Source: Merismopedia glauca CCAP 1448/3 (lineage in GTDB: Bacteria > Cyanobacteriota > Cyanobacteriia > Cyanobacteriales > CCAP-1448). From it: a DNA stretch of 63,987 nt. The stretch is taken from contig NZ_PVWJ01000009.1 in NCBI RefSeq assembly GCF_003003775.1, forward strand, positions 1-63,987. The letters are read 5' to 3'. Within the stretch, counting starts at the first letter, position 1. Every line of letters starts with the position of its first letter. The notes below the pieces were generated by a model. It ran no database searches and had not been told where the DNA came from. It saw only the letters and a program-made list of their open reading frames with translations. Of the stretch, positions 33,421 to 38,848 are shown one piece after another. Both the position numbers and the translations under genes were made by a program.

Positions 33421-34929
33421 ATGGCTAGAGACTTACGGGGATTTCTGAAATTACTAGAAACCAAAGGACAACTGCAAAAAATAGACGCTTTAGTCGATCC
33501 AGATTTAGAAATAGCTGAGATTTCTAACCGAATGTTACAGCAAGGCGGCCCAGGGTTACTCTTTACCAACGTCAAAGGTACTCCTCATCCAGTCGCAATC
33601 AACTTGATGGGAACGGTAGAGAGGATCTGTTGGGCGATGAACCTGGAACATCCCCTAGAATTGGAAGATTTGGGTAGAAAATTAGCTTTATTGCAGCAAC
33701 CAAAGCCCCCTAAGAAAATCTCTCAAGCCGTAGAATTCGGTAAAGTTCTGTTTGACGTTCTCAAAGCTAAACCAGGTCGAGACTTTTTCCCAGCTTGCCA
33801 GCAGGTAGTAATTAAAGATGAAGCTGTAGATTTAAATAAATTGCCTTTAATTCGTCCCTACATAGGAGATGCAGGCAAAATAATCACGTTGGGATTGGTA
33901 ATAACCAAAGATTGCGAAACCGGAACCCCAAATGTCGGGGTATACAGGTTGCAGTTGCAATCGCACAATACCATGACAGTTCACTGGCTGTCGGTGCGGG
34001 GTGGCGCGAGACACTTGAGGAAAGCCGCAGAACAAGGGAAAAAACTGGAAGTAGCTATAGCCCTAGGGGTCGATCCCCTAATTATCATGGCAGCAGCTAC
34101 CCCCATCCCCGTAGACCTGTCAGAATGGCTATTTGCAGGGTTATACGGCGGATCTGGAGTCCAGCTAGCTAAGTGTAAAACCGTAGATTTAGAAGTTCCC
34201 GCCGATTCCGAGTTTGTTTTAGAAGGAACTATTACCCCAGGGGAAGTATTACCAGATGGCCCCTTTGGCGATCATATGGGATATTACGGCGGCGTGGAAG
34301 ATTCCCCCTTAATTCGGTTCCAATGCGTCACCCACCGCAAAGATCCGATATATTTGACCACATTTAGCGGTCGTCCCCCCAAAGAAGAAGCCATGATGGC
34401 GATCGCCCTCAACCGGATCTACACCCCCATTTTACGGCAACAAGTCTCGGAAATAGTCGATTTCTTCCTCCCGATGGAAGCCTTGAGCTACAAAATGGCG
34501 ATTATCTCCATCGATAAAGCCTATCCAGGACAAGCCCGTCGCGCAGCTTTAGCTTTCTGGAGTGCCCTACCCCAATTTACCTATACTAAGTTTGTAGTAG
34601 TGGTAGATAAAGACATTAATATCAGAGATCCGCGTCAGGTAGTTTGGGCGATTAGTTCTAAAGTAGACCCCTCCAGAGATGTATTTATCCTTCCCGATAC
34701 ACCTTTTGACACTTTAGACTTCGCCAGTCAAAAAATCGGTTTAGGTGGACGCATGGGAATCGATGCGACTACCAAAATCCCGCCAGAAACCAACCATGAA
34801 TGGGGTGAACCCTTAGAATCAGATCCAGATGTCGCAGATATGGTAACCAGGCGTTGGGCAGAATACGGCTTGGGCGATTTAGATTTGAAAGAGGTCAATC
34901 CTAATTTGTTTGGGTATGACATGAAGTAG
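33421..34929 (+). CDS. UbiD-family decarboxylase
   Basis: 502 residues, full length for UbiD. It starts MARDLRGFLKLLETKGQL. The prenylated-FMN and Mn/K-binding segments appear at NVGVYRLQLQSHNTM (near 162), HWLSVRGGARHL (near 182) and PDGPFGDHMGYYGG (near 280). The E-R-E catalytic triad region lies in the EGTITPGEVLPDGP block. It should decarboxylate an aromatic or alpha,beta-unsaturated acid with prenyl-FMN. In cyanobacteria the substrate of this conserved member (plastoquinone pathway is one proposal) is not settled. The last 176 codons are duplicated at about 35775-36301. Confidence 0.92.
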   Translation: MARDLRGFLKLLETKGQLQKIDALVDPDLEIAEISNRMLQQGGPGLLFTNVKGTPHPVAINLMGTVERICWAMNLEHPLELEDLGRKLALLQQPKPPKKISQAVEFGKVLFDVLKAKPGRDFFPACQQVVIKDEAVDLNKLPLIRPYIGDAGKIITLGLVITKDCETGTPNVGVYRLQLQSHNTMTVHWLSVRGGARHLRKAAEQGKKLEVAIALGVDPLIIMAAATPIPVDLSEWLFAGLYGGSGVQLAKCKTVDLEVPADSEFVLEGTITPGEVLPDGPFGDHMGYYGGVEDSPLIRFQCVTHRKDPIYLTTFSGRPPKEEAMMAIALNRIYTPILRQQVSEIVDFFLPMEALSYKMAIISIDKAYPGQARRAALAFWSALPQFTYTKFVVVVDKDINIRDPRQVVWAISSKVDPSRDVFILPDTPFDTLDFASQKIGLGGRMGIDATTKIPPETNHEWGEPLESDPDVADMVTRRWAEYGLGDLDLKEVNPNLFGYDMK

Positions 34930-35045
34930 AGAAGTTTCCCGTGAAAATCTATTTAAGATATTTTCCTCAACTTTACCAGACAGTTTCTGGCTATCATAGT
35001 TCAATAAGACAAAATTTTCTGCAAAAGCTATTGTTGTTTCCCCGT

Positions 35046-35162
35046 TTTGTTGAGTTTAATACCAATTCACTATTTATCTGCTACATTTTAATCCTCGGTA
35101 GGGGCGCAACGCGTTGCGCCCCTACCCAGAATTGTCGCATCTCTAAGGTTTGTTGAGTTTAA
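35046..35162. mobile_element. Palindrome-bearing element flanked by 14-bp direct repeats
   Basis: The 14-mer TTTGTTGAGTTTAA occurs at 35046-35059 and again at 35149-35162. Between them lie 89 bp starting TACCAATTCAC, with the perfect 28-bp palindrome (35098-35125, half-site GTAGGGGCGCAACG) and ending CTCTAAGG. Most of the arm (AGAGATGCGACAAT… in reverse) matches the element at 5881. Direct repeats flanking a non-coding element suggest insertion or slippage. The right repeat ends three bases before the brnT start codon. Confidence 0.65.
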
Positions 35163-35165
35163 CCC

Positions 35166-35453
35166 ATGAATTTTGAGTGGGATGAGCCAAAAAATCAGAT
35201 TAATATCGATAAACATGGCTTTGATTTTGCCGATGCATACCGAGTTTTCAATCTGCCAATGGTGGTTGACCTGGATGAGTGCAGCACCTATGGTGAAGAT
35301 CGATGGATTGGAATCGGACTGCTAGATGCGCGTGTAGTGGTTATTGTCTTCACCGAACCTGATGAAAAAACAACTCGTATTATTTCCTTAAGAAAAGCAC
35401 TCTCTCACGAAAGGAAGCGTTATGAGCAATATCTCCAGAACGGATTGGTCTAG
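35166..35453 (+). CDS. brnT: BrnT-family toxin (type II toxin-antitoxin)
   Basis: 95 residues. It has the BrnT hallmarks FEWDEPKNQINIDKHG at the N-terminus, a central RWIGIGLL strand and RIISLRKALSHERKRYE near the C-terminus. BrnT is a RelE-fold ribonuclease that blocks translation and is held by BrnA. It overlaps brnA by 32 bases, the usual toxin-first order. The gene sits between the complete ubiD and its truncated copy, directly after a palindromic element, consistent with arrival as a small cassette. Confidence 0.88.
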   Translation: MNFEWDEPKNQINIDKHGFDFADAYRVFNLPMVVDLDECSTYGEDRWIGIGLLDARVVVIVFTEPDEKTTRIISLRKALSHERKRYEQYLQNGLV

Positions 35454-35703
35454 AATTGATGCTATGGGGGACGATAATATCGACACGTCAGATATCCCGC
35501 CTCTTACAGACAAGTTTTTCTCAAATGCTAAGCTGCGAATACCTTCGTCATCGGTGGCTACAGTGGCAGTTAATGTTGATTCTGAGACACTAGCTTGGTT
35601 TCAATCAAAAGGTGAAGAGGCTGCACCACATATGGCTGCTGCGCTCAAAATTTATGCAGAAGCACAGAAGACCTCTGCTACTATTGTGCGTCAGTCAGCT
35701 TAG
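35422..35703 (+). CDS. brnA: BrnA-family antitoxin
   Basis: 93 residues. The N-terminal region WSRIDAMGDDNIDTSDIPPL is the toxin-binding segment typical of BrnA. The C-terminal half, VAVNVDSETLAWFQSKGEEA then MAAALKIYAEAQK, is the ribbon-helix-helix-type DNA-binding domain. It neutralises BrnT and should repress the brnTA promoter. Start ATG 35422 lies inside brnT. About 65 bp of unrelated sequence follows before the truncated ubiD copy begins. Confidence 0.85.
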   Translation: MSNISRTDWSRIDAMGDDNIDTSDIPPLTDKFFSNAKLRIPSSSVATVAVNVDSETLAWFQSKGEEAAPHMAAALKIYAEAQKTSATIVRQSA

Positions 35704-35774
35704 CTATAAGTTCCGACGAACAGAACAAAGACTTGTTTTACTCGATGAAGATCTTTGGTATGTGCGATGGCATC

Positions 35775-36301
35775 GCCCTCAACCGGATCTACACCCCCAT
35801 TTTACGACAGCAAGTCTCGGAAATAGTCGATTTCTTCTTGCCAATGGAAGCCTTGAGCTACAAAATGGCAATTATCTCCATCGATAAAGCTTATCCAGGG
35901 CAAGCGCGTCGCGCAGCTTTAGCTTTCTGGAGTGCCCTACCCCAGTTTACCTACACTAAGTTCGTCGTAGTAGTAGATAAAGACATTAATATTAGAGATC
36001 CGCGTCAGGTAGTTTGGGCGATTAGTTCTAAAGTAGACCCTTCTAGAGATGTATTTATCCTTCCCGATACACCTTTTGACACGTTAGATTTTGCCAGTCA
36101 GAAAATTGGTTTGGGGGGACGCATGGGAATCGATGCGACTACCAAAATCCCGCCAGAAACAAATCACGAATGGGGTGAACCTTTAGAATCAGATCCAGAC
36201 GTAGCGGCGATGGTAACCAGGCGTTGGGCAGAATATGGCTTGGGAGATTTGGATTTGAAAGAGGTGAATCCCAACTTGTTTGGGTATGACATTAAGTATT
36301 A
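35775..36301 (+). pseudogene. 5'-truncated second copy of ubiD
   Basis: From ATCGCCCTCAACCGG to the stop it repeats the last ~176 codons of the ubiD gene at 34402-34929. By eye there are about 40 base differences over 527 bp, almost all at third codon positions. Only two residues change inside (VADMV to VAAMV, GYDMK to GYDIK) and one Tyr is added at the end. The N-terminal two thirds, with the cofactor site, are missing, so it cannot be an active enzyme. An open frame continues upstream to about 35733, giving a possible 189-residue product. The synonymous pattern says it diverged while still part of a functional gene. Confidence 0.88.
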
Positions 36302-36433
36302 GAATGATAATTATCAATATGCCCATTTAAAGCGGTTATTTGCGGTTTCCGTTGGGTTTCCTTCGTCAAACTAACCTACGGGCGATGGGCGATCGCACTA
36401 GCAGTTTTTTAGGTGGTTTTTCCACAGAATCAC

Positions 36434-36481
36434 ATCCAGAAAAATTCTGGATAATATGACTATTAGGTATATTATCCAGAA
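36434..36481. promoter_or_regulatory. Triple half-site palindromic operator
   Basis: ATCCAGAA (36434-36441), TTCTGGATAATAT (36445-36457) and ATATTATCCAGAA (36469-36481). The first pair makes a perfect palindrome with a 3-bp centre. The second pair makes a perfect 13-bp inverted repeat around 11 bp. The shared middle half-site suggests cooperative binding of a dimeric repressor. It ends 62 bp before the ATG at 36544. Confidence 0.6.
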
Positions 36482-36543
36482 AATTTATTGTTACCATCGT
36501 GTAATACACCGAAAGTAATGTTTCTTCTTGAGAAGGCTTTGTA

Positions 36544-37461
36544 ATGAAGATCATTAGAGTTGTTCATGCCAACACTGCTAAAGAACTTGAAGTTGAAAGG
36601 CAAGCTTTCATACTCCAAAATTATGACTTAGAGGAATTCTTAGTAAAATACGAATCTGAAATTATAAGAGAGGCTAGGCTGGCAGAAATTGAGTTAGCCT
36701 ATAAAAGTGCTAAAAACAGCGCTCTGAAAATTGGACAAATCATGATGAGGTCATTGCCAGTAACTTCTATTTTCGCCGAAGAGTTACTCATTAATCCTAA
36801 GTCTTTTATTAGATTTTCTAAGATAGCCATTTTAACTTTTCTGCAAGATCTTCAAGTCAAGTTAGAAGATGTAGAAGTTCTGCCGCTTGAAGTAGCTAAG
36901 GAAAAGTATCCAAGTAGTCATAACCTTTCAACTGGAACTTATACGCTTCACCCGCGTGATGGTAGCAGGCTTACTCGCCTTGAGTACTATCATAGAAACC
37001 TAGCTCAGGAAAAGGATGATGAATTAATAGTACTACTTGGAAAAATGGGAGCTAAATCACTGAAAATTTTAGAAAGTGATATACAAGATAATTCCATCTC
37101 TGCACGATTACAAATAGATGCAATTGCAATAGATGCAAATAGTAGCATGAATCTTTCTAAAAAAATTGAAAAAGGTAAAGAGCTAATTGTAAATTTTGAA
37201 GGCAATGCTACTAAAATAGAATCAAGTCTATTGGAAAATTCATTGTGGTTTTCAGACGATAGTAAGCTTCATTCAATATTTGAGAGTAGGTTACTAAACT
37301 CCAACAGAATTGAGGAATATGTACTGAAAACTACATATACTGAAACATTCGATTTTGATTTTAGCCTAGCAACAAAATACCTCACATTATATGTTGACTT
37401 AAAGGCAGAGTACCAGTCTCTAAGTAGAAGAGAACGATTTTTCTATGTAAAGTTTGGATAG
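36544..37461 (+). CDS. Orphan 305-residue protein, unknown function
   Basis: I do not recognise this protein. The N-terminal 130 residues are helical and charged (ELEVERQAFILQNYDLEEFL). A more conserved-looking centre reads STGTYTLHPRDGSRLTRLEY YHRNLAQEKDDELIVLLGK, then MGAKSLKILESD. That resembles bacterial unknowns with a xHPxxxxxY…FHR…LLxxLGA pattern. The C-terminal half is beta-rich with LENSLWFSDDSKLHSIFESR and ends SRRERFFYVKFG. No signal peptide or membrane helix is seen. Codon use is AT-rich and HIP1 is absent, unlike its neighbours, which suggests transfer. It has a reasonable ribosome site (GAGAAGG) and a strong palindromic operator upstream. TAGGTTGGGTT-type repeats lie on both sides in opposite orientation. 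Confidence 0.6.
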   Translation: MKIIRVVHANTAKELEVERQAFILQNYDLEEFLVKYESEIIREARLAEIELAYKSAKNSALKIGQIMMRSLPVTSIFAEELLINPKSFIRFSKIAILTFLQDLQVKLEDVEVLPLEVAKEKYPSSHNLSTGTYTLHPRDGSRLTRLEYYHRNLAQEKDDELIVLLGKMGAKSLKILESDIQDNSISARLQIDAIAIDANSSMNLSKKIEKGKELIVNFEGNATKIESSLLENSLWFSDDSKLHSIFESRLLNSNRIEEYVLKTTYTETFDFDFSLATKYLTLYVDLKAEYQSLSRRERFFYVKFG

Positions 37462-37689
37462 TCTTCCTCAAGAGCGAGACTTAAATAACGATTACTGAAC
37501 CTAATTTAATTAGATAGTGTGATCGCAGATCTCGTAGGTTGGGTTGACCTTAGGAAACCCAGCACTTTTCAAACAACATTATTCGTCTAGATCCCGAACA
37601 TCCAGGCATTTTCCAAGCGAGTCAACCCCAGCACAAGCTCCAGATCCAGCTAAAATAGATAGGGGGTAAGTGGCAACGAGATCCAAGCT

Positions 37690-37965
37690 ATGACACTCAG
37701 GCAACCCCGCTACAGTAAAGAAGAATTCGCTCGGCGTGGCAATGAAATTTATGAAACTCAAGTGCGCCAACAAGTTGAGGAAGGCAATTATGGCAAGATA
37801 GTGGCGATAGACATTGAAACCGGAGCCTTTGAGGTTGCCGATGAGTTGTTAGCGGCATCGAAACATCTCTTAGCGCGATCGCCAGATGCTCAGACATGGT
37901 TTGTTCGGATTGGGCATCCAGCAGTCGATCGCTTTGGTGCGCGGAGTTTGAGAACGACGCGATGA
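37690..37965 (+). CDS. Cyanobacterial small protein paired with retropepsin
   Basis: 91 residues. It starts MTLRQPRYSKEEFARRGNEI YETQ and continues KIVAIDIETGAFEVADELLA, ending in a basic tail. I have seen this kind of protein upstream of clan AA aspartic proteases in cyanobacteria; its function is unknown and it may behave like an antitoxin. Its TGA stop (37963-37965) overlaps the ATG of the protease gene (37962-37964) as ATGA, giving translational coupling. Start ATG 37690 is preceded by ATCCAAGCT with no strong ribosome site. Confidence 0.7.
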   Translation: MTLRQPRYSKEEFARRGNEIYETQVRQQVEEGNYGKIVAIDIETGAFEVADELLAASKHLLARSPDAQTWFVRIGHPAVDRFGARSLRTTR

Positions 37966-38330
37966 TGCAAGGATTTGTGAATCAGAGTTGTGAGGCAACG
38001 TTGCCGATTGTCATTAAGAATAATGCCACAACACAACTGGTAGATACCGTGATTGATACGGGATTTTCTGGCTTCTTAACCTTGCCATTCGATATTATCT
38101 CGGCTTTGGGACTTAGTTGGGAAGGTCGTGATGTTGCGACATTGGGTGATGGGACTTCCTGCACTTTTGAGGTCTACATGGCGATCGTCATCTGGGATGG
38201 GCAATATCGCGAGATTTACGTCAATGAATCAGAAACAGCACCTCTAATCGGGATGAGGTTATTGAGAGGTTACGATTTGCGGATTCAGGCAATTGAGGGC
38301 GGTACTATTACGATTGAAGCCTTGAAATAG
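37962..38330 (+). CDS. Clan AA (retropepsin-like) aspartic protease
   Basis: 122 residues from ATG 37962. The catalytic flap region is TVIDTGFSGFLTLP (D-T-G motif near residue 32), followed by LGLSWEGRDVATLGDG and the closing hydrophobic-G motif PLIGMRLLRGYDLRI. It is half-pepsin sized, so it should work as a dimer. Substrates are unknown. Upstream in-frame codons overlap the previous gene and are not used, because the ATGA overlap is a clear coupling signal. The pair forms a compact two-gene unit. Confidence 0.85.
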   Translation: MMQGFVNQSCEATLPIVIKNNATTQLVDTVIDTGFSGFLTLPFDIISALGLSWEGRDVATLGDGTSCTFEVYMAIVIWDGQYREIYVNESETAPLIGMRLLRGYDLRIQAIEGGTITIEALK

Positions 38331-38848
38331 AGCAAGTGCGATCGCTTAAACTAAAGAAGCTCGCTTGCACTAATGTAAAGTTATGCGCTCAAATGTCGAT
38401 CTCTTAATCCCGATGTCTTGAGAAATAGAATCGAACAATTTATTGAGCATTGCGAAAATACATCACAGAGCGATCGCTAAACGTTTCGTAAGTGGCTGGG
38501 CGATCTTCCTGCATCAGTGCAATTTGGGAAGGGTTGGGGAGCGATCGAGCGTTCTAGAATATAGAGATCTCTAATAACCCAAATTTTACCAAGATGGATC
38601 GGAGTTTAAGGCTAATTTCTGGAGAAATCTCCTCAGTTATTGAAGCAGCAGACTAGCGCTAACATCTGAGGGAGTATGTCAAAATAGACTTAAAGCTAAG
38701 TTAAGGAGAGCAATAGCGTTACTGTTATGCTATCGGCGATCGCTTTATACCGATCTACTCAGAAACACTAGTAATTGCTCGTCTAAAATTCCCAGCAATC
38801 GCTCAATTTCTTCATACCCCGTCTAGTTTCTCAAGTTAAATTCTGGCT
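38331..38848. other. 518-bp spacer with possible decayed coding sequence
   Basis: No intact gene. One frame near 38412-38560 reads RNRIEQFIEHCENTSQ, a stop, then FRKWLGDLPASVQFGKGWGA. This looks like eroded protein of unknown family. GCAAGTGCGA…TCGCTTGCAC forms an inverted pair near 38335-38375, and several HIP1 sites are present. The promoter for the gene at 38849 must be in the last 100 bp. Confidence 0.4.

What the first reader, a model, noticed from the sequence alone, without database searches (positions are those of the whole stretch)
36434..37461. Orphan gene behind a strong three-half-site operator
ATCCAGAA/TTCTGGATAATAT/ATATTATCCAGAA forms two overlapping perfect palindromes 62 bp before a 305-residue protein of no known family. 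That protein has AT-rich codons and no HIP1 sites. TAGGTTGGGTT-type repeats lie on both sides in opposite orientation. This suggests a recently gained, tightly repressed gene.
Basis: partly seen in the sequence, partly recalled or inferred. Interest (0 to 1): 0.58.

Follow-up and report, generated by a model that had tools for sequence, protein, structure and literature searches.

The report
Mobile orphan gene beside dispersed repeat
A rare cyanobacterial gene belongs to a widespread but unnamed bacterial protein family, some of whose members sit beside virus-defence genes, while the striking palindrome in front of it is one copy of a scattered DNA repeat rather than a private control switch.

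Summary
In detail: overlapping perfect inverted repeats (36434-36452, 36445-36481) end 62 bp before a 305-aa ORF (36544-37461) with no significant Pfam, NCBIfam, PADLOC or PDB-sequence match.

The private-operator reading fails. The palindrome is the core of a ~119-bp dispersed repeat with six other matching places in this genome, beside unrelated genes, and matches in 5 of 99 other genomes. It is absent upstream of three close homologues. Missing HIP1 sites are uninformative (P 0.31).

'Recently gained' is supported. Close homologues (about 50% identity) are patchy: one other genome of 388 in the order sample, a Calothrix plasmid, and Desulfonema. The gene is AT-rich and lies behind a BrnT/BrnA pair and a displaced 3' ubiD fragment.

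The protein belongs to an unnamed superfamily sharing a C-terminal domain. Members lie beside PADLOC candidate pair PDC-M24A/B (Desulfonema), inside a type III restriction-modification gene pair (Planktothrix plasmid), beside a PDC-M09A gene, and, in a more distant branch, in small-GTPase operons, one next to TRADD-N and CHAT-NACHT genes. Many other members show no such neighbour.

Best guess: a mobile accessory component of anti-phage or conflict systems. Its activity and fold are unknown; both structure models were poor.

The parts
36544..37461 (+). 305-aa orphan gene; variable helical N-terminal part (about 1-100) and conserved C-terminal domain (about 105-305)
36398..36516 (.). copy of a ~119-bp dispersed repeat that contains the palindromes
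36434..36452 (.).
36445..36481 (.). 13-bp perfect inverted repeat, 11-bp gap; core of the dispersed repeat
36351..36379 (-). degenerate TAGGTTGGGTT-type repeat (reverse orientation)
   Evidence: a similar element precedes the C44 copy of the palindromic repeat
37534..37562 (+). TAGGTTGGGTT-type repeat downstream of the gene
35166..35453 (+). BrnT-type toxin gene
   Evidence: Pfam BrnT_toxin E=7.4e-24
35422..35703 (+). BrnA-type antitoxin gene
   Evidence: Pfam BrnA_antitoxin E=0.018, below the curated cut-off; position directly behind brnT
35766..36302 (+). displaced 3' fragment of ubiD, 92% identical to the intact upstream copy, starting at a HIP1-like site
33421..34929 (+). intact ubiD

Best explanation
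Two separate things lie side by side. (1) Shown: the palindrome is the core of a copy of a dispersed, palindromic DNA repeat found at several unrelated intergenic places in this genome and in some other cyanobacteria; it is not a control site that belongs to this gene. (2) Shown: the gene is a horizontally moving accessory gene of an unnamed bacterial protein superfamily with a variable N-terminal part and a conserved C-terminal domain. Inferred: it works as an accessory component (effector or sensor/adaptor) of anti-phage or conflict systems. The conserved C-terminal domain would recognise a partner or trigger, and the variable N-terminal part would carry the output, which is membrane-directed in the branch with hydrophobic segments and probably soluble here. 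The biochemical step is not known.
For: Repeat: a second palindrome with the same 11-bp spacer elsewhere in the genome, control pattern 0; six other matching places, E 4.5e-23 to 4.2e-4, two of nearly full length (alignment), beside unrelated genes; 5 of 99 other genomes; absent upstream of 3 of 3 close homologues examined. Mobility: 1 of 386 genomes of the phylum sample (its own); strong hits in 2 of 388 of the order sample (own and G587; two further weak distant hits); a Calothrix plasmid behind a relaxase gene; Desulfonema, another phylum (1 real hit of 291 genomes of its class); AT-rich. Superfamily: a profile of the four close members ranks 14 more distant members (E 2.5e-6 to 0.006) above the first unrelated ORF (0.015) among 647 ORFs, and a profile of the middle branch finds the close branch back (window E=1.6e-7); close versus middle branch collinear over 241 columns (hhalign E 6.3e-5, probability 64.5%). 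Defence-type neighbours: Desulfonema member 118 bp behind PDC-M24A (1.1e-57) and PDC-M24B (3.5e-87); Planktothrix plasmid p3 member between a type III methyltransferase (1.9e-152) and a restriction endonuclease, 4-bp gene overlap; L013 member beside a PDC-M09A protein (3e-18) with a caspase-domain gene nearby; 9 of 9 loci of the most distant branch have small GTPase - small membrane protein - member, one of them next to TRADD-N and CHAT-NACHT genes. DUF1829, part of the Desulfonema neighbour, was recently validated in phage defence in another system (PMC13092281, passages).
Against: No experiment and no fold (pLDDT 54 and 44). Of 28 member neighbourhoods looked at, only 4 (L002, L013, L114, L152) have neighbours with clear defence or conflict profile hits; not every neighbour was scanned, and many members (L001, L014, L080-L087, L093, L110, L153) show none that I recognised. 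L080, L081, L082 and L085 share one ordinary chromosomal neighbourhood. The GTPase-linked branch is joined weakly to the rest (hhalign probability 8.0% and 6.7%; middle-branch profile does not reach it), and its 9 loci are about 3 lineages. In the window itself no recognised defence gene adjoins the gene, only a toxin-antitoxin pair. PDC systems are candidates, not proven systems. Neighbourhood in islands and on plasmids can arise without functional linkage.
Confidence: 0.55

Rival explanations
1. One reading: the palindrome is a dedicated three-half-site operator bound by a cognate repressor that keeps the gene off.
For: Perfect arms 62 bp before the start codon; far from chance; two promoter-like matches lie symmetrically inside it (where 6 sites were found against 4.2 expected).
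Against: Dispersed repeat, six other places in the genome beside unrelated genes and in 5 of 99 other genomes; conserved beyond the arms over about 119 bp; absent upstream of three close homologues. A regulon with several sites is not strictly excluded.
Confidence: 0.08
2. The gene is a plasmid or genomic-island passenger with a role in element maintenance or transfer, or no selected function, and its defence neighbours are only co-travellers.
For: Calothrix member directly behind a relaxase gene on a plasmid; members on Planktothrix and Pectobacterium plasmids; different neighbours in every close member; many members without defence neighbours.
Against: Tight gene overlap inside a type III restriction-modification pair; repeated three-gene GTPase operons; strong conservation of the C-terminal domain between phyla (60% identity to Desulfonema over that part), which indicates selection.
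Confidence: 0.3
3. The gene is a toxin or effector that has joined or replaced toxin-antitoxin modules and is controlled by a neighbouring antitoxin.
For: BrnT/BrnA lie upstream here. In G587 the gene follows a DUF433 gene, reads on from a short N-terminal stretch that I recall as DUF5615-like, and could be translated together with it.
Against: brnT and brnA both appear intact here; the partner differs in every close member; no toxin-like motif found; in the window the gene is separated from brnA by 840 bp including the ubiD fragment.
Confidence: 0.1

Closest known systems
PDC-M24 (DUF6978 + DUF1828/DUF1829 pair, PADLOC candidate defence system)
   Same: The Desulfonema close homologue lies directly downstream on the same strand.
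   Different: The orphan itself matches neither PDC-M24 model, and no such pair is next to it in the window, in Calothrix or in G587.
Type III restriction-modification (mod/res)
   Same: A middle-branch member sits between the two genes on Planktothrix agardhii plasmid p3.
   Different: The window gene has no methyltransferase or restriction gene beside it.
NTP-dependent conflict systems of multicellular bacteria (TRADD-N, CHAT-NACHT, GTPase-centred)
   Same: The GTPase-linked branch has a small Arf/Roc/Ras-like GTPase gene and a small membrane protein gene in front; one locus adjoins TRADD-N and CHAT-NACHT genes.
   Different: PMC7159879 (passages) says its GTPase-centric systems are nearly absent from cyanobacteria, so this GTPase operon is probably not that system; the window gene has no GTPase partner beside it.
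Small dispersed palindromic repeats of bacteria (REP, REPIN, MITE kinds; listing only)
   Same: Short, palindromic, intergenic, several copies, partial copies.
   Different: Only about seven places found; no target-site duplication, transposase or Rfam match identified (one search covers 35000-38800).

Membership tests
Gene-specific operator | Site specific to the gene's promoter, conserved upstream of homologues | tested here: not met
Gene-specific operator | Bound by a cognate repressor | not testable with these tools
   needs a binding experiment
Dispersed palindromic repeat | Several copies at unrelated loci with similarity across the element | tested here: met
Dispersed palindromic repeat | Stem kept by paired changes (folded nucleic acid) | tested here: inconclusive
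   87.2% of cells paired against 37-55% for slid versions, but covariation no better than shuffles (302 of 500 shuffles reach it); none of 13 predicted pairs with a both-side change
MITE | Terminal inverted repeats, target-site duplication, parent transposon | not tested
   element ends were not defined well enough
Known protein family (Pfam, NCBIfam, PADLOC, PHROGs, PDB sequences) | Significant profile match of the orphan | tested here: not met
   only weak PDC-M08B lines for 2 and 1 of 24 superfamily members, none for the orphan
Unnamed superfamily described here | C-terminal domain found both ways by profiles | tested here: met
   close and middle branches both ways
Unnamed superfamily described here | GTPase-linked branch belongs too | tested here: inconclusive
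   found by close-branch profile (7.5e-6 to 1.2) and (about 1e-10 with a profile that held L013 and L014), but hhalign probability 8.0% and 6.7%
Anti-phage defence component | Lies in or beside defence genes | tested here: inconclusive
   yes for 4 of 28 neighbourhoods by clear profile hits; not for the window gene
Anti-phage defence component | Protects cells from phage | not testable with these tools
   needs phage challenge

The most novel reading that the evidence does not exclude
The conserved C-terminal domain is a new shared sensor or adaptor module of bacterial immunity, used by type III restriction-modification operons, PDC-M24-type pairs and membrane GTPase/CHAT-NACHT conflict systems, and the window gene is a stand-alone anti-phage member that travels by itself.
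Probability: 0.25. Interest if true: 0.7.

Novelty: new variant of a known kind. Interest (0 to 1): 0.4.

Why it matters
If the inference is right, a domain without a name in Pfam or NCBIfam links several bacterial conflict systems, and its members point to untested defence genes. The correction matters as well: a perfect palindrome in front of an orphan gene looked like an operator until the whole genome was searched, when it proved to be one copy of a scattered repeat.

Tried and rejected
Chance as the source of the palindrome: rejected. Absence of HIP1 as evidence of foreign origin: rejected. RNA families: none at E up to 1 in 35000-38800. RNA hairpin or terminator: the strand folds better than shuffles (z -3.15), but no terminator-like site was found and the stem shows no covariation beyond shuffles. 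Viral homologues: four scans of viral contigs and the phage collection with the window protein found none; a middle-branch query found one gut scaffold filed as a bacteriophage (MT836227) whose other ORFs look bacterial to my eye. Solved structures by sequence: only designed proteins, spider silk and similar chance lines. Structure prediction: two jobs, both poor, so no fold search was run. The G741 hit (E=0.004) was rejected because its ORF lies opposite a histidine-kinase-like gene (by eye); it still ranks at 0.015, above seven of the weaker true members. ubiD fragment as a simple recent tandem duplicate: 36 synonymous against 3 other codon differences in 175 codons (one of the 3 is the stop), and both copies are equally far from relatives (75-81%), so it more likely came from, or evolved as, a working gene. 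Synteny: none of the 10 other window proteins tested lies beside ubiD in 10 loci fetched from 9 other genomes.

Papers: PMC7159879, PMC8195603 and PMC13092281 were seen as passages only; the rest as search listings. These searches were not able to show that the family is absent from print.

Full report
What the finding says and what is there. The letters are as described: 8-bp arms at 36434-36441/36445-36452 and 13-bp arms at 36445-36457/36469-36481, ending 62 bp before the ATG of a 305-aa ORF. Such inverted repeats average 0.03 per window-sized random sequence, though the window holds several others of that size. The gene has no significant match in Pfam, PADLOC, NCBIfam or PDB sequences. It is the lowest-GC ORF of 35 in the window, though only just (34.1% against 34.4% for the next). 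It lacks HIP1 sites, which is expected by chance in about a third of genes of this length.

The palindrome is a dispersed repeat. The narrow pattern with a gap of up to 6 was found only here, but TTCTGGAT-N3-30-ATCCAGAA also occurs at C61:14400-14436 with the same 11-bp spacer, and the control pattern gives none. A search with 176 bp of upstream DNA found six further places in the same genome: C110 (79%, 117 bp), C61 (77%, 119 bp), and shorter matches at C106, C65, C77 and C44 (E 5.8e-12 to 4.2e-4). The alignment shows similarity running well beyond the arms. The copies lie near unrelated ORFs at varied distances. With the C106 copy as query, 6 of 100 genomes including its own had matches at E up to 1e-4. 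The C61 copy has four direct repeats of a 25-bp unit at spacings of 40, 40 and 32. The C44 copy is also preceded by a TAGGTTGGGTT-like element. In the 260-300 bp upstream of the three close homologues there is no such palindrome. A gene-specific operator is therefore unlikely; a multi-site regulon is not strictly excluded.

Close homologues and mobility. A scan of genome contigs found two: Calothrix sp. PCC 7716 plasmid p6 (50%) and the Desulfonema magnum chromosome (48%). The plasmid collection gives the Calothrix plasmid alone; the phage collection gives none. In the phylum sample only the own genome of 386 matched. In the order sample 4 of 388 matched: the own genome, G587 (E 6e-130), and two weak distant hits. 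In the class of Desulfonema 2 of 291 matched, one being Desulfonema itself and the other a rejected chance ORF. In G587 the gene follows a DUF433 gene, and its reading frame runs on from a short stretch that I recall as the start of a DUF5615 protein. In Calothrix it follows a mobilisation gene.

The window's own surroundings. Upstream lie brnT (E 7.4e-24) and a weakly matching brnA (E 0.018), then a 3' fragment of ubiD 92% identical to the intact copy upstream. The codon differences are 36 synonymous and 3 others in 175 codons. The fragment starts at a HIP1-like site. In G062 a separate, 97% identical 272-bp ubiD fragment starts at the same HIP1 site. These point to recombination at this locus; they do not date it.

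The superfamily. Iterated searches found distant members: 21 of 340 genomes of the order with a six-row profile, and 14 of 242 with a fourteen-row profile in the order of Calothrix, a set that overlaps the first, as contig lengths and places show. In a test set of 647 ORFs, a profile of the four close members ranks 14 distant members (E 2.5e-6 to 0.006) above the first unrelated ORF (0.015), and the other seven between that ORF and the next unrelated one (1.5). A profile of the middle branch, built without close members, recovers the window gene at 1.6e-7 and the other close members at up to 9e-4. A profile of the GTPase-linked branch recovers Desulfonema at 1.4e-4 but the window gene only at 1.8. 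Profile-profile comparison gives E 6.3e-5 (probability 64.5%) for close against middle, and only 8.0% and 6.7% probability for the GTPase-linked branch. I take close and middle as one family and the GTPase-linked branch as probable. No member has a significant known-family match. PADLOC PDC-M08B appears weakly for 2 and 1 of 24 members (best E 0.006). The N-terminal part of 7 of 10 middle-branch members has a 19-residue window of hydropathy of at least 1.6, but the window protein only 1.05, so a membrane role is not indicated here.

Neighbourhoods. I looked at 28: four close, fifteen middle, nine GTPase-linked. Clear defence or conflict profile hits adjoin four. In Desulfonema, PDC-M24A (1.1e-57) and PDC-M24B (3.5e-87) end 118 bp before the gene. 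On Planktothrix agardhii plasmid p3 the member lies between a type III methyltransferase and a restriction endonuclease gene, overlapping the latter by 4 bp. At L013 the next gene matches PDC-M09A (3e-18) and, below cut-off, LRAT, with a caspase-domain gene nearby. At L114 the member follows GTPase and membrane-protein genes and adjoins TRADD-N and CHAT-NACHT genes, with a short gene behind it that I read as LRAT/papain-like but that has only a sub-threshold C97 line. All nine GTPase-linked loci have the same three-gene order (the small gene of L089 is seen as an ORF); five come from one genus and three are nearly identical, so about three lineages. The GTPase assignment was tested in three of them and passed Pfam's cut-off in one. 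Against this, L001, L014, L080-L087, L093, L110 and L153 show no defence neighbour that I recognised, and not every neighbour was scanned.

How it most likely works. Shown: a mobile, rare gene in a superfamily with a conserved C-terminal domain, sometimes in defence operons. Inferred: it is an accessory part of anti-phage or conflict systems, with the C-terminal domain sensing or docking and the variable N-terminal part acting. DUF1829, present in the Desulfonema neighbour, has been validated in phage defence within another two-gene system (PMC13092281, passages). The biochemical activity is unknown and both structure models were poor. I give the whole explanation 0.55; the repeat half alone deserves about 0.9.

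Noticed in passing
35766-36302; L048:3508-3783: 3' fragment of ubiD starting at a HIP1-like site; an unrelated cyanobacterial genome (G062) carries its own 272-bp ubiD fragment starting at the same HIP1 site, which may be a recombination hotspot.
   Followed up: partly
5918, 24798, 35097: Dispersed palindrome around GTAGGGGCGCAAC occurs at least three times in the window.
   Followed up: no
36305-36316: TGATAATTATCA palindrome right behind the ubiD fragment; resembles what I recall of Fur/Zur boxes.
   Followed up: no
37690-38330: Small unknown gene overlapping a clan AA aspartic protease gene (NCBIfam E 1.2e-15), perhaps another two-gene cassette.
   Followed up: no
L088-L092, L111-L114: Cyanobacterial three-gene operon: small GTPase, small membrane protein, distant superfamily member; possibly an undescribed conflict system.
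   Followed up: partly
L117:6282-6418: Four direct repeats of AGAAACTTTCTGGATAT type at 40, 40 and 32 bp spacing in one copy of the dispersed repeat.
   Followed up: partly
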